A stretch of DNA of 64,000 nucleotides from Zhongshania marina (lineage in GTDB: Bacteria > Pseudomonadota > Gammaproteobacteria > Pseudomonadales > Spongiibacteraceae): the NCBI RefSeq assembly GCF_002915595.1, contig NZ_PQGG01000012.1, positions 1 through 64,000 on the forward strand, given 5' to 3'. Positions 1 through 12,053 of the stretch are shown here, piece by piece. The notes below the pieces were generated by a model. The model saw only the letters and a list, made by a program, of their open reading frames with translations. It did no database searches and was not told the origin of the DNA. Each line of letters opens with the position of its first letter. Within the stretch, counting starts at the first letter, position 1. Both the position numbers and the translations under genes were made by a program.

Positions 1-20
1 ACCCGTAGTGCATTTAGGAA
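1..20 (+). repeat. IS left terminal inverted repeat
   Basis: Reads ACCCGTAGTGCATTTAGGAA. It pairs with the reverse complement of 953-972 with a single mismatch (A versus G at position 7). Confidence 0.9.
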
Positions 21-83
21 GGAGGTAAGTTACTCACCCTCATAAAGAGGTTATCATTAGTTTACGAGAAAAATGGTAACGAG

Positions 84-2305
<2,222 letters not shown>

Positions 2306-2372
2306 AAGAGAAGGGCGCTTGTCGGCGCTCTAATCTCTATCTTTAAACTGTGACAGCTTCAATATAAACTTG

Positions 2373-3605
2373 TTAAACAGAGCGTTCTTTACCGCTTGCC
2401 GCCCGCTTTTTATCGTCGGTCTGTACATAGACAGTGTCGGTTGTAGACATACTCGCATGACCTAGATCCTCAGATACATCTTTAAGCGCGCGGCCACGTT
2501 CAATCTCTAAACTCGCGCCGGTATGGCGTAGCCAATGGGTTGTCGCTTCTTTGAATTTGCTAGCATTATCCTCACCGTAGCGCGCCTTCATTTGCTCGTA
2601 AGCCTGATCAAATACTTCTTGTACCAAACGTGACAATTGCCGCGCCGTCATTCCACCGCGACCGCGAATTTTTTCAATAATAGGGTGGTTTTCACCCGCT
2701 ACCGGTAACTTATTCAGGCCTCGATGCTGTCTATATCGTGTCAAATACGCTAGAAAGCTCGGTGGCACAGTAATATCGCGAACTTTTCGGCCCTTGCCAT
2801 AAATTTTTAACCACCAGTTATTGTCATTATCTTTCCAAAAATGACTCATTATTGGCGACCATTCTGGACGGTCCGAATACTCAGATATTCGGAGAAATAG
2901 CGTTTTTAAAGAGGCAATCAGGAATAAACTGCGCTCGTATCTCGAGTCTTCGTCAGCCATTGCGTGGGCAACCTGCAAAAGAAATTGCCACTGATCCTCG
3001 CTTAAGCGTTTTACATCTTTAACCTGAGCGTCTCTAATTAAGTAGCGACAATCTTTTTTGGCAATTTGTACGGGGTTGCCGTAGCAGTATTCTTCATCGG
3101 TCAAATGTTTGTAAAACGCATTCACGGCGGTGAAGCTTGCTTGCAGGGTTTCTTGCGAGGGGTGGTATTTCTTTTTGTCAGGCTTCGAGTTGTCGCCTTT
3201 GGCAGTCATCAATCTAAATGGTGCCCATTCAGGATTACTGATGTATAAGCCACCTTTAAGATGAAATTTCTCTACATTAGATAGGCATATCCACGTTAAG
3301 GGTGGTCGCCAGCAAAAATCAATATATTCTAAGATGTCAGATTTCCGGTATTCATCGATGGGCTTGTCCTTAATTAAAAACGCCCAAAGCAGAAACTTTT
3401 CGATCTCTGAACGAAATCGTGTGTAAGTATGCTCAGATTTGTTTCGACCGATATAACAGAGAAATTCGTGACCCCAGCGCCATGCCTTAGATTTCCATTC
3501 ATCTGCATCAGCGAGTAACGATGCTAAATCGGGAAATTCCTCAATTTTTACAGCTTTAAGATCCTTGTAAGTTGGGTACAAAGGAATCGGTCTAGGAATA
3601 GCCAT
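2373..3605 (-). CDS. Tyrosine recombinase / phage-type integrase
   Basis: A 410-residue site-specific recombinase of the lambda-integrase superfamily. The N-terminal part (about 40-180) looks like a SAM-like core-binding region, and the catalytic domain follows. Probable catalytic residues are Arg239 (LFLRISEY), Lys271 (YGKGRK), His357 and Arg360 (HWLRHTG), His383 (LGHAS) and the nucleophile Tyr393 (TVYVQ). All are present, so the enzyme is probably functional. It stands alone: no excisionase, phage or conjugation genes are visible, and it points toward the metal-efflux remnant and the IS. This marks 1-3605 as the edge of an acquired or decaying island. No tRNA target is visible beside it. 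Integron-type features and the XerC/D partner context are lacking. Confidence 0.88.
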   Translation of the reverse strand: MAIPRPIPLYPTYKDLKAVKIEEFPDLASLLADADEWKSKAWRWGHEFLCYIGRNKSEHTYTRFRSEIEKFLLWAFLIKDKPIDEYRKSDILEYIDFCWRPPLTWICLSNVEKFHLKGGLYISNPEWAPFRLMTAKGDNSKPDKKKYHPSQETLQASFTAVNAFYKHLTDEEYCYGNPVQIAKKDCRYLIRDAQVKDVKRLSEDQWQFLLQVAHAMADEDSRYERSLFLIASLKTLFLRISEYSDRPEWSPIMSHFWKDNDNNWWLKIYGKGRKVRDITVPPSFLAYLTRYRQHRGLNKLPVAGENHPIIEKIRGRGGMTARQLSRLVQEVFDQAYEQMKARYGEDNASKFKEATTHWLRHTGASLEIERGRALKDVSEDLGHASMSTTDTVYVQTDDKKRAASGKERSV

Positions 3606-3671
3606 GTTTTATCCTGATACCTGATTTAGCGCACATAGACGAATATCCGCATTGTAGCAGCCTATACTCAC

Positions 3672-3701
3672 TATTTCCAATACTGGAGAGTATCGGAAAT
3701 A
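3672..3701. repeat. Near-perfect 13-bp inverted repeat upstream of the integrase
   Basis: The arms TATTTCCAATACT and AGTATCGGAAATA pair at 12 of 13 positions around a 4-nt loop. It lies about 70 bp upstream of the recombinase start, between the recombinase and the divergent eptA. It could be a regulator-binding operator, a recombination core site or an RNA hairpin. The TCTTTT that follows is too weak to call it a terminator. Confidence 0.5.
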
Positions 3702-3800
3702 TCTTTTGGTATGCTTAGCAACTCAAGCACCCCTTTAGTTCTGTGGGTGGATTATTAGGATTGATGCGCTCTATCACGTCGGTTAACGCACAAAATAAAC

Positions 3801-3817
3801 CTTAAGACTCTCTTAAC
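3801..3817 (+). promoter_or_regulatory. PmrA-like direct-repeat box upstream of eptA
   Basis: CTTAAG, five bases, CTTAAC. This closely fits the known PmrA/BasR binding pattern of two YTTAAK hexamers spaced by 5 bp. Its end is 65 bp before the eptA start codon. A further half-site-like TTTAAG occurs at 3833-3838. No pmrAB genes lie in the window. Assignment to PmrA is inferred from the motif and from the identity of the gene downstream, since eptA is the classical PmrA target. Confidence 0.5.
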
Positions 3818-3882
3818 TATGATCGAATAAAGTTTAAGTACTGCTGATTTGCTGTACCCACGATATCGAGAAAACTTGCTTA

Positions 3883-5538
3883 ATGAACACTTCGCCTAAG
3901 TTTAGACCTCTAATAAAAAAGTTACTCCCTGAATACTTAACATTGATTATTCTGGCGTTATTTTTGTGCCTGAGCGCAAATCTGAGATTCTTCCAAAAAG
4001 TATTAGACATATACCCCTGGGCTAGCAACCAAGGATTCATTTGTTCTTTGGTCTTGCTGCTGTTTGCATGCCTACTTTTTTTTGCGGCGCTTTTTAGTGT
4101 TGTTCTGTCGGTTAGAGTGACGGCGGTGATATTTTTATTAGTCGCTGCCTCTAGCGCACATTTTTCGGACAGCTTCGGCACGGTTATAGATAGCGACATG
4201 CTGCGAAATGTATTAGAAACAAATGTAGCTGAATCGGCCGATTTATTAAACCCATCGCTTGGTTTACGGCTTTTATTGTTAGGCTTTCTACCCGCCCTGT
4301 TTATTTGGCGTTTTTCCGCAAGTGGCACTGGGTTTATAAGCTCGGCGCTGAAAAATGGGCTTATTTCGATAATTACGTTAGGCATCGCAGCTGCTTGTAT
4401 CGCTGGTTTTAGCAGTCAATATGCGAGTTTCTTTAGGGAGCATAAGCCGGTTAGGTACTATATCAACCCCGCCTACCCTATCTATTCGGCAATTAACTTG
4501 GGCGCTAGCTTTATACCTAAAGGCCCACCGCGACCCTTTCAAGCACTGCAAGCACAGGCAAATATCGTTGAAGAACAAGAAGCACACTCGGAGCTAATTG
4601 TTCTAGTGATAGGTGAAACGGCTAGAGCGGATCACTTTTCATTGAATGGCTATGAACGTGAAACGAACCCTCAGCTTGCCAAACAGGATCGTCTAATCAG
4701 CTATTCCAATATCCAGTCCTGCGGTACAGCAACGGCGATTTCGGTGCCCTGCATGTTTTCCTATTCGACACACGCTAATTTTGACCTGAAGAGCGCTCGA
4801 AACACGGAAAACGGTTTAGATTTGCTAAAGTCTGCGGGTGTTAATGTGTTGTGGCGAGATAATAATTCTGACTCAAAGGGGGTGGCAGATAGAGTAGAGT
4901 ATGAAAATTTTAGATCGCCAGGCCTTAATCCGATATGCGATTCAGAATGCCGAGATATAGGAATGTTAGGAGGCCTTCAGGAGTATGTTGACGGTCATTC
5001 TGGCGATACCCTAATTGTGCTTCATCAAATGGGTAGCCACGGCCCAGCTTACTTTGCGCGCTATCCAAAGGAATTTGAGAAATTTACACCTTCCTGCAGA
5101 TCTGCAGAGCTTTCTGAATGCAGCCAACAGGAGGTTATCAACGCCTACGACAACACTATTTTATACACAGACTATTTTCTATCTCAGGTAATTCGATTTT
5201 TAGAATCAAACTCCAGCCGTTATGAGACAGCGATGTTTTACGTAAGCGATCATGGTGAATCCCTCGGTGAATCTGGAATCTACCTGCATGGCATGCCCTA
5301 CGGCTTCGCTCCTAGGGCGCAAACTCACGTCCCGGTGTTAGCTTGGGTTGGTGCGTCATCTGATATTGATTACGAACAGAGCAAATTACTAAAGGACACC
5401 GCAAATACCCACGATGCGGTTTTTGATACCTTGATGACTATATTCGAAGTAACGACATCGTTACTTCCTACGTCAGCAGCGCAGCTAGTTATACTTAAAC
5501 CTGAGGAGGAAGAGGAAGTAGCCAGTGTCCCCCACTAA
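3883..5538 (+). CDS. eptA: Lipid A phosphoethanolamine transferase (EptA/PmrC/MCR type)
   Basis: An inner-membrane enzyme that transfers phosphoethanolamine from phosphatidylethanolamine to lipid A on the periplasmic side. This lowers surface charge and raises tolerance to polymyxins and cationic peptides. The 551 residues comprise about five N-terminal transmembrane helices (roughly 18-35, 50-70, 75-95, 128-145, 158-176) and a periplasmic sulfatase-fold domain from about 235. Residues matching the MCR-1/EptA active site are visible: Glu245 (VIGETARADH), the nucleophile Thr284 in the CGTATAISVPC context, Asp456-His457 (VSDHGESLGE) and His469. Paired cysteines in the periplasmic domain are as expected for the family. 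A PmrA-like box precedes it, and the next gene overlaps its 3' end by 14 bp, which implies coupled translation. It is the chromosomal EptA type, with nothing to indicate recent mobility except its position beside the integrase region. Confidence 0.9.
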   Translation: MNTSPKFRPLIKKLLPEYLTLIILALFLCLSANLRFFQKVLDIYPWASNQGFICSLVLLLFACLLFFAALFSVVLSVRVTAVIFLLVAASSAHFSDSFGTVIDSDMLRNVLETNVAESADLLNPSLGLRLLLLGFLPALFIWRFSASGTGFISSALKNGLISIITLGIAAACIAGFSSQYASFFREHKPVRYYINPAYPIYSAINLGASFIPKGPPRPFQALQAQANIVEEQEAHSELIVLVIGETARADHFSLNGYERETNPQLAKQDRLISYSNIQSCGTATAISVPCMFSYSTHANFDLKSARNTENGLDLLKSAGVNVLWRDNNSDSKGVADRVEYENFRSPGLNPICDSECRDIGMLGGLQEYVDGHSGDTLIVLHQMGSHGPAYFARYPKEFEKFTPSCRSAELSECSQQEVINAYDNTILYTDYFLSQVIRFLESNSSRYETAMFYVSDHGESLGESGIYLHGMPYGFAPRAQTHVPVLAWVGASSDIDYEQSKLLKDTANTHDAVFDTLMTIFEVTTSLLPTSAAQLVILKPEEEEEVASVPH

Positions 5539-6220
5539 ACATATTGCTGCCTCTCTTGCCGCCCTAGTCGCGTTAATGGTCTTTTTTGAGCTTACAAACT
5601 TCGATCTCTGGGTGCAAGACTTTCTATACACGCCACAATCTGAAGAATGGCTGTTAAGCACATCGAACTCGCCACTCTATTTTATTTTTTATGATGGCCC
5701 TAAAAAGTTACTAGTCTTTTTTGAGTTGGCTTTATTGTTTGTGGCTATTTTTTTCAATCAGCGAGGTCTATTCAAGCACTATCAGCAGGGTATTTTGATC
5801 GTGTTGATTGCCCTACCACTTGGGCCCGCTCTGGTGTCGTCGTTAAAAAGCAGCACAAATGTCGCCTGCCCCTATGCTCTTGTGGATTACGGTGGGAAAT
5901 TATCCTATATAGGCGTCTTAGAATCCTACCCAGAAGACAGCCAACCACAAAAGCGGCAGCGATGTTTTCCAGCAGGCCACGCGAGCGGTGGGTTTGCGCT
6001 ATTGGCGCTCTACTACCTACCCAAGTCCCGACGCAATAAAAATAAGATGCTTGCTCTGGCAATGATTGCCGGTACTTTAATGGGGGGTTACAAGATGATG
6101 GTTGGACACCACTTTCTAAGCCATACATTGGTATCAATGGTGATTTGCTGGCTAGTTGTGAATATTGTCGCCCTGTTGGTCTTACCGTGGCGAAGTATGA
6201 ACTCTTCAGTGCTCGATTAG
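5525..6220 (+). CDS. PAP2-family membrane phosphatase, probable lipid A phosphatase (LpxE/LpxF-like)
   Basis: A 231-residue polytopic inner-membrane phosphatase of the PAP2/type 2 phosphatidic acid phosphatase superfamily. Three motifs are visible: K108-x6-CP (the variant of KX6RP with Cys in place of Arg), the central FPAGHASG with His152 (normally SGH), and K190-x5-H196-x3-H200 in place of the usual R-x5-H-x3-D. Predicted membrane segments lie at about 7-23, 62-78, 90-107, 153-166, 174-190 and 200-223. It starts inside eptA with a 14-bp overlap, so the two are almost certainly co-translated. Paired LpxE and EptA enzymes are known in Helicobacter, where one removes the lipid A 1-phosphate and the other adds phosphoethanolamine. 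A similar role, or recycling of a phosphorylated lipid, is inferred here. Undecaprenyl-pyrophosphatase or phosphatidylglycerophosphatase activity is the alternative. Confidence 0.78.
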   Translation: MSPTKHIAASLAALVALMVFFELTNFDLWVQDFLYTPQSEEWLLSTSNSPLYFIFYDGPKKLLVFFELALLFVAIFFNQRGLFKHYQQGILIVLIALPLGPALVSSLKSSTNVACPYALVDYGGKLSYIGVLESYPEDSQPQKRQRCFPAGHASGGFALLALYYLPKSRRNKNKMLALAMIAGTLMGGYKMMVGHHFLSHTLVSMVICWLVVNIVALLVLPWRSMNSSVLD

Positions 6221-6445
6221 CCCCCCCTCTCGCGAAGCCAAGTAATCGATGAACACACTGAGTGAGTGCTTATTTTTTGAGCAGCGATGCTTATTGTTTT
6301 TTTAGTCAACATAGAAATGTAGCGTGCTTTAACGCCATCATACGTGGTTCTCCGGAGCGGTCTGTATTATGATTATGCCGGTTCTTACTCTGGCTGACGC
6401 TCCGTCATCCGTGCCTGAATGATAACTAATAAGGATTGTAATTCT

Positions 6446-7951
6446 ATGGATCAAAGTATGGTGCGCGCCTTTGCGGGCAATTTTCTCGGTAATGCGCCAT
6501 TGTGGTATAAAAAAACCATCATTGGCTTCTTGATATTAAATCCCATCCTGTTTTATACGGCCGGCCCTTTTGTAGCAGGCTGGGCGCTTATTGCGGAGTT
6601 TATTTTTGCCCTCGCGATGGCATTGAAGTGCTACCCCCTCCAGCCTGGCGGCTTACTTGCCATTGAGGCTATCGTGATCGGGATGGCATCGCCAGAAACC
6701 GTGTACATGGAGGCTAAAAACAATTTCGAAGTAATCCTGCTGCTCGTATTTATGGTCGCAGGTATCTACTTCATGAAGAACCTGCTGTTATTTGTTTTTA
6801 CCAAATTATTGCTTGGAATTCGCTCTAAGATAGCCTTGTCATTGGTCTTCTCGAGTATGGCAGCCATACTAAGTGCCTTCCTAGATGCTTTAACAGTAAC
6901 GGCAGTGTTGATCGCTGTAGGTATTGGCTTTTATTCGGTGTATCACCGCGTAGCCTCCGGCGGGCACCATTCACACCATGATCATGATCATGGCGATGAC
7001 AATAAAGTCACAGAAAATTCTCGCGCTGACCTTGAACAATTTCGTGCCTTCCTGCGCAGTTTGCTAATGCACGGCGCGGTGGGTACTGCGCTTGGCGGTG
7101 TGTGTACATTGGTCGGTGAGCCGCAAAACCTACTGATTGCAGAAAAAATGGGCTGGAGCTTTATTCACTTTTTCCAAGTGATGGCGCCAATTACCATGCC
7201 GGTTTTATTTGCTGGTCTTTGCACCTGTGCCTTACTAGAAGTGTTTGGCTGGTTTGGCTACGGCGCAAAATTGCCTGATTCAGTGCGCAATGTTCTAGTT
7301 GAATACGATAAAGAGCAAGATGAGAAAAGAACCCCCTCGGACGTTGCAGAGCTTATTATTCAAGGCTTAGTCGCCATATTTTTAGTCATCGGACTAGCCT
7401 TGCATTTGGCTCCCGTGGGCTTGATTGGTTTAACGATTATTGTATTGCAAACGGCCTTTAACGGTATCGTTGATGAACATCGCATTGGTCACGCCTTTGA
7501 AGAGGCACTGCCCTTTACCGCCTTATTGGTCGTGTTCTTTGCCATTGTTGGGGTAATTCACGAGCAGCATTTATTCAAGCCGATTATCGACTCGGTACTG
7601 GCAATGGAAGGCCAAGCTCGTACTGTCATGTTCTTCGTTGCTAACGGCTTGCTAAGTGTGATCAGCGATAACGTGTTTGTGGCAACAGTTTATATCAATG
7701 AAGTGAAAGCAGCCTTTGATGCGGGTAATCTGACCCGTGAAGAACTCGAGCACTTGGCTGTCGCCATCAATACTGGAACGAATATCCCCAGTGTTGGCAC
7801 GCCAAATGGTCAGGCGGCGTTCTTGTTCTTATTGACCTCTGCCCTCGCCCCGCTGATTCGTTTGTCTTACGGTAAAATGGTTATTATGGCTCTGCCATAT
7901 ACCATCGTAATGAGCAGCGTTGCAGTTACTGCAGTGTGGTTCTTTGATTAA
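6446..7951 (+). CDS. nhaB: Na+/H+ antiporter NhaB
   Basis: An electrogenic inner-membrane sodium/proton antiporter for sodium and pH homeostasis. The first ATG in frame is at 6419. The start chosen is ATG 6446, because the protein then begins as E. coli NhaB does (residues before NFLGxxPxWYK) and AAGGA precedes it at 6431-6435. The 501 residues carry the family segments [36 protein letters not shown] and the C-terminal [37 protein letters not shown]. The cytoplasmic or periplasmic loop at about 172-190 is unusually rich in histidine and aspartate (HHSHHDHDH at 174-182), unlike the E. coli protein. A strong hairpin terminator follows. In P. aeruginosa nhaB also lies close to fimL. Confidence 0.95.
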
Positions 7952-7974
7952 AACCTTAGTCAAAAGCACTCACT

Positions 7975-8000
7975 AAAAAAGGGCCACGCGGCCCTTTTTT
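7975..8000. terminator. Bidirectional rho-independent terminator
   Basis: A GGGCC/GGCCC stem extended by six A:T pairs on each side, with a T run on both strands. It lies between the 3' ends of nhaB (+) and the pseudopilin gene (-), so it can serve both. Confidence 0.85.
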
Positions 8001-8021
8001 AGTTTTAAAGATCGTAACATT

Positions 8022-8519
8022 CTAGTCGAAATAATTTTCGTCGCTACGAAACCGAATAGAAATATCCTGATTCATTTTCTTACCATTAGGTTTTGCGTCA
8101 GCACCAAGAGTGGTTATTTCAAAGCCAGGAGGAGAATCAGAGCTCTTATATAAATAGGCATTATTCCATGGGTCTTGGGTAAGGCTAGCGCGGCCGATAT
8201 AAGGCCCCTTCCATAACGGCGCCAACGGAGGCGTTTGAGGCTGTATATAAAGCGCCGCCAAGCCTTGCTGGCTGCTTGGGTAGCGTTTGTTATCGAGCTT
8301 GTATTGGTGTAAGGCCGTAGATAGGCGCCTAAAATCGTTATTTACCTGCTCACTCATCGCGCTTCCGAGCCGCTGATAAATAATACTGCCGACTGCAAGA
8401 GCAATGGCAGCGGTAATAGCCAGGATTAATAGTAACTCCCAGCGTTTAATGCCCTGCTGGCGGTGTCGGCTTGGCGTTTTTTCCAGGCTTTTTTCTTTAG
8501 CGCAGAGTACGTCAGTCAA
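8022..8519 (-). CDS. Orphan GspG-like type II secretion pseudopilin
   Basis: A 165-residue pilin-like protein. After a basic 23-residue leader ending in Gly comes the N-methylation/helix region IKRWELLLILAITAAIAL, with Glu at mature position +5 but Ile rather than Phe or Met at +1. The C-terminal half has the major-pseudopilin signature: NKRYPSSQQGLAAL, WKGPYIG, DPWNNAYLY, PGFEITTLGADAKPNG and a terminal DI segment. The mature protein would be anchored in the inner membrane after prepilin peptidase processing. The start is TTG at 8519, preceded by GAGTGG on the minus strand. No ATG exists upstream of the pilin helix in this frame. No other gsp gene is nearby. It could be a minor pilin used by a remote T2SS or type IV pilus, or a free-standing descendant. 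The next gene on the strand, sohB, lies 75 bp upstream. Confidence 0.75.
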   Translation of the reverse strand: MTDVLCAKEKSLEKTPSRHRQQGIKRWELLLILAITAAIALAVGSIIYQRLGSAMSEQVNNDFRRLSTALHQYKLDNKRYPSSQQGLAALYIQPQTPPLAPLWKGPYIGRASLTQDPWNNAYLYKSSDSPPGFEITTLGADAKPNGKKMNQDISIRFRSDENYFD

Positions 8520-8594
8520 ATATTTACCACTCTTTAAACTGATACTTAATATTAGTTTTAATACGCTTATGCGCGATAGGCTAACTGCCTAATT

Positions 8595-9629
8595 TCATAC
8601 ATTCCAGCGACTTTGGCTTAATTTACCTATAACCGCATTAAGGCTGCGGCTAAGTGCGCCCTCGGCGGCAAAGCCCAAGCGTTCAGGTAAACTGCGCTTT
8701 TGACGATATTTAACAGAAAATATATCGGTATCGGCTCGCTTGCTTAGCAGGTAGTCGTCACTGGTACGAATTTCATCTATTAACTTCTGATCTAGAGCAC
8801 GTTTCCCGTACCACACCTCGCCGGTTGCGATATGATCGATATCGAGTTCTGGTCGATTCTCGCTGACAAATTCTTTAAATAGAACGTGGGTATCCTCAAG
8901 CTCTTCTTTAAATTTTTGCCGACCCTCTTCAGTGTTTTCGCCAACCATCGTCAAGGTACGCTTATGGGCACCTGCGGTATGTAGCTCTATGTCAACATCG
9001 TGCTTTTTTAATAGCCGGTTAAAGTTTGGAAGTTGCGCAACTACTCCAATCGAACCGATGACTGCAAATGGGGCTGCCAGTATACGATTACCAATACACG
9101 CCATCATATAGCCGCCGCTAGCAGCAACGCGATCTATAGCGATAGTAAGTGGAATACCGTGACTCCGAATACGTTGCAATTGCGATGACGCCAACCCGTA
9201 GCTATGTACCATTCCACCCGGGCTTTCTAATCTGAGTAGAATTTCGTCTTCAGGCTTGGCAACAGTGAGTACAGCGGATATTTCATGGCGGAGAAATTCC
9301 ACCTCAGAAGCGCTCATATCACCGTCAAAATCGAGCACAAATAAGCGTTTACGCTGCTCTTGGGTGTTTTTCTTGCGATCCTGCTTTTCTTGCTTCTTCT
9401 TAGCTTTACGCTCTTTTTTAAAGGCGTCTTCGTCGAGAATTTCGAACTTCAGCATGTCTTCCCAATCCTCAAACTTGTGGTTTAAGGTGGTGACTTCTAT
9501 ATGCCCTTCACTGCTATCCCGCTTATTGCGCTGACTCGCTACGGCGATGGCACTGACAACAACGATAACGGCAACAAGGATAGTGACCGATTTGGCCAAA
9601 AATAAGCCGTATTCCGATAAAAATTCCAA
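8595..9629 (-). CDS. sohB: Inner-membrane peptidase SohB (S49 family)
   Basis: A serine protease of the SppA/SohB family, anchored by one N-terminal transmembrane helix (about 13-31) with the protease domain in the periplasm. It can substitute partly for DegP in E. coli. Residues 60-95 form a highly charged Lys/Glu-rich linker as in other SohB proteins. The Ser/Lys dyad is Ser171 (RVAASGGYMMA) and Lys223 (HKRTLTMVGENTEEG). ESPGGMVHSYGLASSQL precedes it. The start is TTG at 9629. The protein then begins MEFLSEYGLFLAKS, matching the E. coli N-terminus, and GGGAG lies 8 bp upstream, so the non-ATG start is well supported. Length 344 is normal. Confidence 0.93.
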   Translation of the reverse strand: MEFLSEYGLFLAKSVTILVAVIVVVSAIAVASQRNKRDSSEGHIEVTTLNHKFEDWEDMLKFEILDEDAFKKERKAKKKQEKQDRKKNTQEQRKRLFVLDFDGDMSASEVEFLRHEISAVLTVAKPEDEILLRLESPGGMVHSYGLASSQLQRIRSHGIPLTIAIDRVAASGGYMMACIGNRILAAPFAVIGSIGVVAQLPNFNRLLKKHDVDIELHTAGAHKRTLTMVGENTEEGRQKFKEELEDTHVLFKEFVSENRPELDIDHIATGEVWYGKRALDQKLIDEIRTSDDYLLSKRADTDIFSVKYRQKRSLPERLGFAAEGALSRSLNAVIGKLSQSRWNV

Positions 9630-9689
9630 CTAAGTACTCCCAGATTGGTATAAAAAGTGGCACATAGTGTTATGTGAAGGACCGCTAAG

Positions 9690-10337
9690 TCAAGTTGGCC
9701 AATTGCCTAAGGCCTTGACTGCTATTGGGTTTTCGGCCCGAATAAATAAGCCGCTACGCCCTAAGTAGACGTTAAACTGCGCGCCATCAACCATTGGGGC
9801 AAAAACCGCGTTCCCATAGTCGGCCTCTACCCATTTATGAAAAAATTCGCTGCGGCGCAACCAAGTCCATATGTCTACGGGTTCAGAAAGATTTATTAAA
9901 TAAACGGTGCGAGTTAAATTACGCTCTTCTTCTATGCTTTGGTAACGACCAGTCAGGCGCTCTAGACGGAATAGATTGTCAAAGCCCAAGCGGGCGACCG
10001 GCAAAGCCCAACGGATGACTCTGCTGTCGAGCTGCCATTGATCCCCCATTAAAAGAAAGGTTTGCATGGGTTCTTCGTTAGCGGTATCTACGCTGACAAT
10101 ATATTGCTGCTTCTCTTTGCCTGCGATAAAAACTCTTGCCACAAGCTGTTCATCTGCTAAATGACGGTAGCTATAAACGTCTTTAGTAACAATCACAGCC
10201 ATAGCAGTGAAACTTACGGATAAGATTACCGCGAGAAGACCACTGAAGACGTGTCGTCGCAGGCGTAAGACAGCCATAAGACACAGCAAAACGCCAAAAC
10301 CTGTCAATATCAATAATATTTGGTCTAGACCGATCAT
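9690..10337 (-). CDS. Conserved membrane protein of unknown function next to fimL
   Basis: A 215-residue protein with two N-terminal transmembrane helices (about 5-23 and 31-50), then a soluble, probably periplasmic, domain of about 160 residues. That domain is rich in beta-like strands and aromatic residues (WQLDSRVIRWALP, LTGRYQSIEEERN, DIWTWLRRSEFF). It has no recognised catalytic motif. It begins 12 bp after the fimL stop on the same strand with AAGGAT upstream, so it is likely in the fimL transcript. The architecture resembles small membrane proteins often annotated loosely as efflux proteins in pseudomonads, but the sequence gives no support for transport. Function unknown. Confidence 0.7.
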   Translation of the reverse strand: MIGLDQILLILTGFGVLLCLMAVLRLRRHVFSGLLAVILSVSFTAMAVIVTKDVYSYRHLADEQLVARVFIAGKEKQQYIVSVDTANEEPMQTFLLMGDQWQLDSRVIRWALPVARLGFDNLFRLERLTGRYQSIEEERNLTRTVYLINLSEPVDIWTWLRRSEFFHKWVEADYGNAVFAPMVDGAQFNVYLGRSGLFIRAENPIAVKALGNWPT

Positions 10338-10349
10338 TTTTGCATATCC

Positions 10350-12053
10350 TTAACTTGCAAGCTTCAGAGTGGCAATGCTGTCCTCAGCAACTTTAAGAAT
10401 CCCTTCATCTGCAATATGCCGCCGACCTAACTCGTTCAGGTAGTATTCGATACTAATCATGGCATCGGCGAGGGTTTCCAAGGCTTGTACATCTGAAGCG
10501 GGGTTTACGGCGTCACGCTCAACAAATCGCCTCATAAATTGGCTAGCGCCCAATGTCACTTCTGGTAATTTGCTGGCATTGATCATCTGAAATGCACCGC
10601 GTACCGAATCTAGTAGCTGCGGTAGATTTGCAATATGGGTAGCGTCAAATCCAGAATCGATGTAGGCCGAAATAGCGCGTTTTACCAGCCCGATTGCTGC
10701 TTTAGACTCTTCTATGACGATACTTTTCGCTTCGCTAACTTGATTATCCACACTAATAGCATCGCGACGCTCTAAGCTAAGCTCACCTAAATCTTCATAG
10801 TTCAATTTTCGGCGATCAATCTGAGCCAAACTGCTGTCGATGAACAATAATGTTTCCGCCAAGTCTTCGAGCCGGCTACGTTCTTGGCTCAAATCGCTTC
10901 CTTCTAAGGCTCGTAGGGCATCAGCGTGCTCTATAAGGGTTGACGCTAAAGACGGTAAATTAAGCACTCGGAGAATGTCTGCACTTTGCTTTAATACTGC
11001 GGTAAGTGGCGCTATTTCTTCGCTTTCGCTTCTCTGGTGTAGAGCCAGCAGCTCTAGCACATCTTTAGCGTGGCGTAGCTCGGTGCGCAGCTCATGGATC
11101 ACCGATGAGACAGTATCGTAACTCAGGCCCAACATAATGCCGCGCAGTGTTTTGAGCTGCTCATCGTTAATGTCAGCGGCGTGTATGCGCGCTACTTTTA
11201 CAACTTTGCCAACTAAACCTTCTTTATAAGCACTGAGCGACAGCAGAAAACAAAGCTCCCTCTCCAGCACTTCGTTAATAACCATGCGATTTTTTAGTCG
11301 CGCCCGCATCTGACCTTCTAAGCCTGCTAATACACGCTTGCGATGAGGGTTTAGCTCTAGGCCATTATTTACAAACGCTTCTAGCAGGGCGTCGGCTAAC
11401 AGCCAAAATCGTTGCTGGGGACCAGCTTCGATCGTGCTGCGAAGACGTCTAATCGCTCGCGACATAATGGTGAGTTGCATGGGGTTATGCGCATCACGCA
11501 GCAAGCCTAATAAGCCGCTTTGATAAAGGTGGTTGATACGCTTTAAGTTTTCTATAAACGCTGTCTCAGCTAAAGGCGTTCCCTGTATGCGTATATTTGA
11601 ATCACGACTAAACAAACTTTCATCGGACTGAGAAAAATAGCTATCCGGTAAAAGTAATTGATTGTGTGCGGCACGCAGTTCGTTTACATGAGCGATAACA
11701 AGCTGAGGAATCTCTGATTGCCTAGACTGTACAAATTCTAAATAACGGGGCAGCACAAAGAACGCTGTACTCAGCGCATTTAGCCGCCCTTCGGGAACCG
11801 CATTTATACTTTTAAGAATGGCACCACATAACATTCGCATTTCGTCGGCGAGCAAGGCTGCCCCCGGAATTTGGAGCAAACGCAGCGTGCCGCCGATTTG
11901 CCGCAAATTTGCTTCGCACTGCTCAAGCAGGGCTAGGTTATGCCGTTCAGACAAAAATGTTTCAAAAACATTGGTGGCTTGTTGCAAGGTTTTCGCTAGC
12001 TCTTCTTCAACCATCGCATAGGAGCTTGTATTTATTTCTACTTTCAGTGCCAC
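10350..12053 (-). CDS. fimL: FimL-like scaffold protein (ChpA N-terminal homologue)
   Basis: A 567-residue, mostly alpha-helical cytoplasmic protein. The N-terminal block (LAKTLQQATNVFETFL, NLRQIGGTLRLLQIPGAALLADEMRML) closely matches the first repeats of the chemosensory histidine kinase ChpA. Later helical repeats resemble degenerate Hpt modules. No kinase, receiver or CheW domain is present. In P. aeruginosa FimL promotes adenylate cyclase (CyaB) activity and so type IV pilus twitching and virulence regulation, acting with FimV and the Pil-Chp system. The gene's place near nhaB, dnaQ and rnhA is the same there. The start is GTG at 12053 with AAGGAT just upstream. No pilus genes are in this window, so the partner system must be elsewhere. 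Confidence 0.85.
   Translation of the reverse strand: MALKVEINTSSYAMVEEELAKTLQQATNVFETFLSERHNLALLEQCEANLRQIGGTLRLLQIPGAALLADEMRMLCGAILKSINAVPEGRLNALSTAFFVLPRYLEFVQSRQSEIPQLVIAHVNELRAAHNQLLLPDSYFSQSDESLFSRDSNIRIQGTPLAETAFIENLKRINHLYQSGLLGLLRDAHNPMQLTIMSRAIRRLRSTIEAGPQQRFWLLADALLEAFVNNGLELNPHRKRVLAGLEGQMRARLKNRMVINEVLERELCFLLSLSAYKEGLVGKVVKVARIHAADINDEQLKTLRGIMLGLSYDTVSSVIHELRTELRHAKDVLELLALHQRSESEEIAPLTAVLKQSADILRVLNLPSLASTLIEHADALRALEGSDLSQERSRLEDLAETLLFIDSSLAQIDRRKLNYEDLGELSLERRDAISVDNQVSEAKSIVIEESKAAIGLVKRAISAYIDSGFDATHIANLPQLLDSVRGAFQMINASKLPEVTLGASQFMRRFVERDAVNPASDVQALETLADAMISIEYYLNELGRRHIADEGILKVAEDSIATLKLAS

What the first reader, a model, noticed from the sequence alone, without database searches (positions are those of the whole stretch)
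3801..3838. PmrA-like box in front of eptA
CTTAAG-N5-CTTAAC is a near match to the two-hexamer PmrA site known upstream of eptA/pmrC in enterics and Pseudomonas, with a third TTTAAG half-site 21 bp on. If real, it predicts that lipid A phosphoethanolamine addition here is induced by a PmrAB-like system (metal, low Mg or cationic peptides). Nearby loss of a metal pump would be of interest for such metal sensing.
Basis: partly seen in the sequence, partly recalled or inferred. Interest (0 to 1): 0.55.

Follow-up and report, generated by a model that had tools for sequence, protein, structure and literature searches.

The report
PmrA/QseB-type activator site driving eptA
In a marine bacterium of or near the genus Zhongshania, a lipid A modification gene carries a conserved activator-type promoter, and the only other exact copy of its core in the genome starts a ten-gene operon that encodes the likely regulator, an iron-permease-like protein and a LuxI-fold enzyme.

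Summary
CTTAAG-N5-CTTAAC at 3801-3817 is the best match in the window, and its core CTTAAG-N5-CTTAA occurs exactly twice in the 4.13-Mb genome. The other copy starts a ten-gene operon: LuxI/FeeM-fold 'thermostable hemolysin', AMP ligase, haem-oxygenase-like protein, SDR, TPR-like protein, PmrA/QseB-like regulator, QseC-like kinase, cupredoxin, FTR1, orf. In the genus the exact box precedes eptA in 7 of 9 eptA-bearing genomes and that operon in 11 of 12. The five genus genomes without the regulator have no eptA, T_hemolysin gene or exact box. A TAnnnT -10 lies at one fixed distance in 25 of 26 aligned promoters, as in an activator-dependent promoter. The third half-site shares the last base of the -10, lies 3' of it and is not conserved. 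The regulator keeps PmrA's key DNA-reading residues but is neither a PmrA nor a QseB by model cut-offs; its kinase resembles QseC, so Fe3+/low-Mg2+ sensing is not established. Most likely this regulator activates eptA-pap2 together with its own operon. Binding and signal are inferred, not shown.

The parts
3801..3806 (+). first half-site CTTAAG of the PmrA/QseB-type box
   Evidence: exact box in 7 of 9 genus genomes with eptA
3812..3817 (+). second half-site CTTAAC (CTTAA kept in the aligned promoters by choice of pattern; last base varies)
3828..3833 (+). -10 element TAAAGT, 10 bp after the second half-site
   Evidence: TAnnnT at this offset in 25 of 26 aligned promoters; promoter activity inferred
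3833..3838 (+).
   Evidence: TTAA at this offset in 0 of 25 other promoters
3883..5538 (+). eptA, lipid A phosphoethanolamine transferase (controlled gene)
   Evidence: NF028537 624 bits, cut-off 500; PF08019 and PF00884
5525..6220 (+). pap2, PAP2-family phosphatase overlapping the end of eptA (likely same transcript)
   Evidence: PF01569; NF028538 PAP2 lipid A phosphatase 170 bits, below its cut-off of 275; next to eptA in all 10 fetched places of relatives with a long eptA

Best explanation
The box and the -10 form one activator-dependent sigma-70-type promoter. A phosphorylated dimer of the PmrA/QseB-type regulator on contig C23 binds the two direct-repeat hexamers head to tail, 11 bp apart, in place of a proper -35, and switches on eptA-pap2. 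The same regulator switches on its own ten-gene operon from an equal promoter (positive feedback). Its QseC-like kinase partner senses an envelope signal. The result is joint induction of lipid A phosphoethanolamine addition, a PAP2 phosphatase, an FTR1/cupredoxin pair and a small acyl-chemistry pathway. Shown by sequence: box, -10, conservation, the regulator's co-occurrence and recognition helix, gene order. Inferred: binding, activation, phosphorylation, co-transcription, signal.
For: Only two exact core boxes in the genome, one at eptA and one about 50 bp before the operon that holds the regulator. Exact box upstream of eptA in 7 of 9 genus genomes that have eptA, and upstream of the T_hemolysin gene in 11 of 12; G007, the twelfth, has a relaxed box with the same -10. 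In G002, where the enzyme genes were not found, the box stands about 180 bp before regulator-kinase-cupredoxin-FTR1. The five genus genomes without the regulator (of 18; E<=1e-50) have no exact box, eptA or T_hemolysin gene. TAnnnT at one fixed offset in 25 of 26 promoters, though the promoters were chosen by the box alone. The regulator carries equivalents of His193, His195, Asn188, Arg171, Arg198 and Arg210 of Klebsiella PmrA (PMC3973317, passages; mapped by motif); Lys153 is Arg and Thr187 is Ser; none of the genome's other 6 BasR-like regulators has both histidines. E. coli eptA and qseB have the same kind of box.
Against: No binding or expression data. Genome-wide counts of the pattern are not above the reversed-pattern control, and 12 of 36 distinct exact sites in the genus lie elsewhere (hand count). 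G010 and the two long eptA copies of G011 (L008, L024) lack the exact box, and so do 4 of 6 non-genus genomes with long eptA homologues. G004, without the regulator at E<=1e-50, still has a box-like promoter at a TlpA-like gene, so another regulator can use similar sites. Regulators beside the T_hemolysin genes of G026 and G039 fall outside the clade. The genus genomes are related, so they are not independent trials.
Confidence: 0.77

Rival explanations
1. The box is bound by another OmpR-family regulator of the genome (PhoP-, CusR- or PhoB-like), not the C23 one.
For: Seven OmpR-family regulators match BasR at E<=1e-10; G004 has a box-like promoter without the C23-type regulator.
Against: Only the C23 regulator has the PmrA/QseB recognition helix; the other six differ at His193 and/or His195. 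In the genus, 12 of 13 genomes with the C23-type regulator have at least one exact box and 0 of 5 without it, and the second exact box of the own genome is at its own operon.
Confidence: 0.12
2. The regulator represses, or merely occupies, the promoter, and eptA is driven mainly by something else.
For: OmpR-family regulators can do both (general knowledge); in E. coli a pmrA qseC double mutant has raised eptA (PMC10729948, passages).
Against: The -10 stands at one fixed distance with the hexamers where a -35 would be, the layout expected for activation (reading of layout is inference).
Confidence: 0.08
3. Chance near-palindrome without function.
For: Genome-wide counts do not exceed the reversed control; at 2 mismatches the window holds what chance gives.
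Against: Conserved position in 7 of 9 genus genomes plus G038 and G030, with diverged surroundings, and the fixed -10.
Confidence: 0.02

Closest known systems
PmrA box of eptA/pmrC (E. coli, Salmonella, Klebsiella)
   Same: Two (C/T)TTAA(G/T) hexamers with N5, upstream of eptA; E. coli K-12 eptA has CTTAAGGTTGGCTTAAT at -63; same key DNA-reading residues in the regulator.
   Different: Regulator not next to eptA but on another contig in a biosynthetic operon; below the PmrA equivalog cut-off; kinase nearer QseC than PmrB.
QseBC (PreAB) two-component system
   Same: Kinase best matches QseC; E. coli qseB has a like box, CTTAACAACTTCTTAAG at -102; Salmonella preAB shows positive autoregulation and was found in a screen for regulators of pmrCAB (PMC2653508, passages).
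   Different: Regulator in a clade of its own (99/95), not with E. coli QseB; linked to FTR1, cupredoxin and an acyl-chemistry gene set.
LuxI/LasI AHL synthases and FeeM N-acyl amino acid synthase
   Same: Predicted fold of the operon's first protein: TofI 2.5e-6, LasI 8.3e-6, FeeM 1.8e-5.
   Different: 8-15% identity; annotated 'thermostable hemolysin' (PF12261); no product known.

Membership tests
PmrA-regulated promoter (PmrA box) | Two YTTAAK hexamers in direct repeat with N5 | tested here: met
   11 of 12 positions at 3801-3817; last base C instead of G/T, so a strict YTTAAK scan misses it
PmrA-regulated promoter (PmrA box) | Placed before eptA/pmrC and conserved there | tested here: met
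   exact in 7 of 9 genus genomes with eptA; also G038 and G030, 2 of 6 outside the genus
PmrA-regulated promoter (PmrA box) | Bound by a PmrA protein | not testable with these tools
   needs purified regulator
PmrAB two-component system | Regulator above the PmrA equivalog cut-off (NF007928, 330 bits) | tested here: not met
   246 bits
PmrAB two-component system | PmrA DNA-contact residues named by Lou et al. (His193, His195, Asn188, Lys153, Thr187, Arg171, Arg198, Arg210) | tested here: met
   six of eight identical, Lys153 to Arg and Thr187 to Ser; E. coli QseB also has the two histidines
PmrAB two-component system | PmrB-type kinase with short periplasmic loop and ExxE motifs (criterion recalled) | tested here: not met
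   QseC-length loop; no literal ExxE in first 170 residues, one ExxD
QseBC two-component system | Regulator and kinase above QseB/QseC cut-offs | tested here: not met
   213 of 345 and 221 of 475 bits
QseBC two-component system | Grouping with E. coli QseB in a tree | tested here: not met
   own clade of 23 rows, 99/95; only one QseB and one PmrA reference in the tree
EptA | Lipid A phosphoethanolamine transferase family cut-off | tested here: met
   NF028537 624 bits, cut-off 500; below the stricter EptA equivalog NF008619 (457 of 660)
AHL / N-acyl amino acid synthase | Fold | tested here: met
   Foldseek top 16 matches are AHL synthases and FeeM, TM 0.45-0.52 by query and 0.54-0.65 by target length; model pLDDT 86.7, of the Zhongshania aquimaris protein
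AHL / N-acyl amino acid synthase | Catalytic residues and product | not tested
   no assay; residues not mapped

The most novel reading that the evidence does not exclude
The operon makes an N-acyl compound through its LuxI/FeeM-fold enzyme, and the QseC-like kinase reads that compound (or the iron or membrane state it sets). Lipid A decoration by eptA-pap2 would then be tied to a self-made acyl signal or envelope amphiphile and to FTR1-type iron handling: a third branch of PmrA/QseB signalling, with its own product.
Probability: 0.15. Interest if true: 0.8.

Novelty: new variant of a known kind. Interest (0 to 1): 0.5.

Why it matters
It indicates that control of eptA by a PmrA/QseB-type box reaches marine bacteria far from the enterics, and it identifies the likely regulator by sequence alone. 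It also ties lipid A modification to a conserved ten-gene operon with a LuxI-fold enzyme and an FTR1-family permease, which makes the natural signal for eptA directly testable in bacteria not known as pathogens (general knowledge). The MCR models match this eptA (MCR-6 488, MCR-2 479, MCR-1 476 bits, all below their cut-offs), and a PAP2 gene also sits near MCR-1 (name of NF028536), so the native control of such pairs bears on where mobile colistin-resistance cassettes come from.

Tried and rejected
Third half-site: rejected. Excess of boxes genome-wide: not found. Exact-core placements in the 18 genus genomes (own included) sum to 41 against 35 for the reversed control; the argument rests on position, not number. 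Counting palindromic pairs once, the genus has 36 distinct exact sites: 8 at eptA (one at a fragment in G011), 11 at the T_hemolysin gene, 1 at the regulator gene of G002, 4 at a BamA-like gene, 12 elsewhere (hand count). One of the 12 (G011, L143 2284) looks like an eptA promoter cut off by a transposon. Three further relaxed matches with a -10 in the own genome (C25:181401, C25:306790, C44:231411) overlap gene ends or lie inside an ORF. A BamA-like outer-membrane gene has the box in G003, G005, G006, G016, and G038 without the -10; 9 of its 14 homologues lack a good box, and none was found in the own genome at E<=1e-40. A TlpA-like thioredoxin gene has box-like promoters in G005, G006, G007, G008, G016, and in G004 without the regulator. 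Literature: the library (open-access PMC only) held no paper with both 'thermostable hemolysin' and PmrA, with 'PmrA box', 'half-site' and eptA, with 'thermostable hemolysin', N-acyl and acyltransferase, or with Zhongshania and phosphoethanolamine; the titles and abstract starts listed showed nothing on the operon. The exact tests treat related genomes as independent and are only a guide.

Rows left out or changed: one search contained one wrongly cut row (G050_L105), noticed from its stop codon and replaced; only one search is used. The 26 promoters leave out L076 (G017), whose promoter equals L075 over the stretch shown, the G011 eptA fragment, the BamA-like and TlpA-like promoters, and all loci without an exact box in the right orientation. 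Five of the 13 named loci (L123-L127) lie at the same places as G009, G005, G017, G003 and G016 and are not counted twice. In one search an overlap filter hid some matches (for example the T_hemolysin match in L123-L127 and the regulator in L124, L126, L127), so gene order there is taken from L128 and L130-L135.

Full report
WHAT IS THERE. The window is the start of contig C4 of a 4.13-Mb genome. At 3801-3817 stands CTTAAG-ACTCT-CTTAAC, 82 bp before the ATG of eptA (3883-5538), followed by an overlapping pap2 gene (5525-6220) and nhaB (6419-7951). eptA passes the lipid A phosphoethanolamine transferase model (NF028537, 624 bits, cut-off 500).

IS IT MORE THAN CHANCE? At loose stringency no: 20 matches with up to 2 mismatches in the window against 21.3 expected, and a strict YTTAAK-N5-YTTAAK scan of the genome gives 17 against 19 for the reversed control and misses this site, whose last base is C. 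The exact core CTTAAG-N5-CTTAA occurs twice in the genome, and the reversed control also twice. The signal is in the place. The second copy lies about 50 bp before an operon that contains the genome's best PmrA homologue (48% to E. coli BasR). I searched 57 genomes (own included; 18 of the genus). eptA at 55% identity or more was found in 9 of 18 genus genomes, and the exact box is within 160 bp upstream of the match in 7 of these 9. The misses are G010 and G011; G011 has two long copies without the box and a short eptA fragment with it. Outside the genus, 2 of 6 genomes with long homologues at 37-50% have it (G038, G030).

THE OTHER PROMOTER. The first gene of the operon encodes a 'thermostable hemolysin' family protein (PF12261). 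Among 18 genus genomes 12 have it, and 11 of the 12 have the exact box within 132 bp upstream of the match; the twelfth (G007) has TTTAAG-N5-TTTAAG with the same -10. Of 8 other genomes with a homologue, one (G026) has the exact box and three more (G024, G046, G039) a relaxed box with -10; four (G022, G023, G038, G045) have neither. Among 8 further named loci (L128-L135), 5 have the exact box in the right orientation, L132 has it only on the other strand at the contig edge, and L133 and L134 have none. In G002, where no T_hemolysin gene was found, the box stands about 180 bp upstream of regulator-kinase-cupredoxin-FTR1. The simplest reading is autoregulation.

PROMOTER ANATOMY. I aligned 26 box promoters (9 eptA, 16 operon, 1 regulator gene) on the box alone. 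A TAnnnT starts exactly 27 bases after the first box base in 25 of 26; the exception is eptA of G038. In the window it is TAAAGT, 3828-3833. It begins 10 bp after the second hexamer, so the hexamers lie where a -35 would be contacted. That is the layout of promoters activated by OmpR/PhoB-type regulators (general knowledge).

THE REGULATOR. In the genus, the C23-type regulator (63-100% identity) is in 13 of 18 genomes, within about 5 kb of the T_hemolysin gene in 12. The five without it at E<=1e-50 (G001, G004, G013, G014, G015) have no exact box, no eptA and no T_hemolysin gene. Seven OmpR-family regulators of the own genome match BasR at E<=1e-10. Only the C23 one keeps both histidines that Lou et al. 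call highly likely determinants of Klebsiella PmrA base specificity (His193, His195; PMC3973317, passages only), plus equivalents of Asn188, Arg171, Arg198 and Arg210; Lys153 is Arg and Thr187 is Ser (mapped by motif). E. coli QseB also has the two histidines, and E. coli qseB has such a box in its own upstream region, so the box does not tell PmrA from QseB. In a tree of 45 rows the genus regulators, that of Microbulbifer, six other named loci, G024, G030 and G050 form a clade of 23 (99/95) apart from BasR and QseB (one reference each). The regulators beside the T_hemolysin genes of G026 and G039 fall outside it, on the QseB side, so the operon type and the clade do not coincide fully. Model scores are below the equivalog cut-offs of PmrA and QseB. 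The kinase is nearer QseC than PmrB, with a long periplasmic domain and no literal ExxE. I call the regulator PmrA/QseB-type and not PmrA.

THE OPERON. Gene order (L040, minus strand): T_hemolysin, AMP-binding ligase, haem-oxygenase-like iron protein (PF14518), SDR, TPR-like protein, regulator, kinase, cupredoxin, FTR1-family permease (PF03239 33.8 bits, cut-off 25.3; EfeU model 52 of 255), orf. That it is one transcript is inferred. The order is kept in Microbulbifer guangxiensis, Aestuariicella albida, Pseudomaricurvus, and in Porticoccaceae, Cellvibrionales and other MAG loci (L129 is cut by the contig end, and FTR1 was not detected in L134). The AlphaFold model of the Zhongshania aquimaris T_hemolysin protein (pLDDT 86.7) matches AHL synthases TofI, LasI, RpaI, BjaI and the N-acyl amino acid synthase FeeM best. 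An N-acyl product is therefore plausible but unproven.

MOBILITY. eptA-pap2 sits beside nhaB in the own genome, G017, G006, G005 and G016, all with the box; in G002 and G009 it has the box but nhaB was not found in the 15 kb fetched; in G010 and G011 neither box nor nhaB was found with the long copy fetched. A tyrosine recombinase gene on the opposite strand stands directly upstream in the own genome, G006, G009 (fragment) and G011 (at the eptA fragment). The box is kept in both settings, so it seems to travel with the gene.

HOW IT MOST LIKELY WORKS. An envelope signal activates the QseC-like kinase; the phosphorylated regulator binds both box promoters; eptA-pap2 and the operon rise together with positive feedback. 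Salmonella PmrA is activated by Fe3+ through PmrB (PMC3531487, passages) and the QseC orthologue PreB has a putative iron site (PMC2653508, passages); with FTR1 and cupredoxin in the operon, iron or copper is the first guess for the signal here, but this is inference. Confidence that the C23 regulator activates eptA through this box: 0.77.

VERDICT. A real regulatory element of a known kind, with a regulator that is a distinct branch and an unexpected partner operon.

Noticed in passing
window 1-2305; G000 C21:214935-216728: An IS982-family copy (NF033520) splits a CusA/CzcA-type heavy-metal RND gene: model positions 1-600 end contig C21 and 595-1045 start this window, both next to the same IS, with a shared 9-base flank seen by eye. 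Another CusA/CzcA gene over the family cut-off (open frame 1042 aa) is at C21:201522-204638.
   Followed up: partly
window 3675-3698: Inverted motif TTCCAATAC-N6-GTATCGGAA between the start of the tyrosine recombinase gene (2373-3605, minus) and the eptA promoter; also beside the same recombinase in G009 and G011, not found in this form in G006; possibly a recombination site.
   Followed up: partly
L143 (G011) 2284-11470: Two box promoters, one with a short eptA fragment, are followed by 1000-residue ORFs that look like Tn3-type transposases (name recalled, not tested): apparent eptA copies cut by transposons.
   Followed up: no
L040:9017-9745 and relatives: 'Thermostable hemolysin' (PF12261) proteins are predicted to have the fold of AHL / N-acyl amino acid synthases; the annotation is probably misleading.
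   Followed up: partly
L150, L151, L154 (G003, G006, G005): A BamA-like outer-membrane protein gene has the same box and -10 at about -70 to -90; likely further regulon member, not found in the own genome.
   Followed up: partly
L153, L155-L159: TlpA-like thioredoxin genes with box-like promoters in six genus genomes, one of them (G004) without the C23-type regulator.
   Followed up: no
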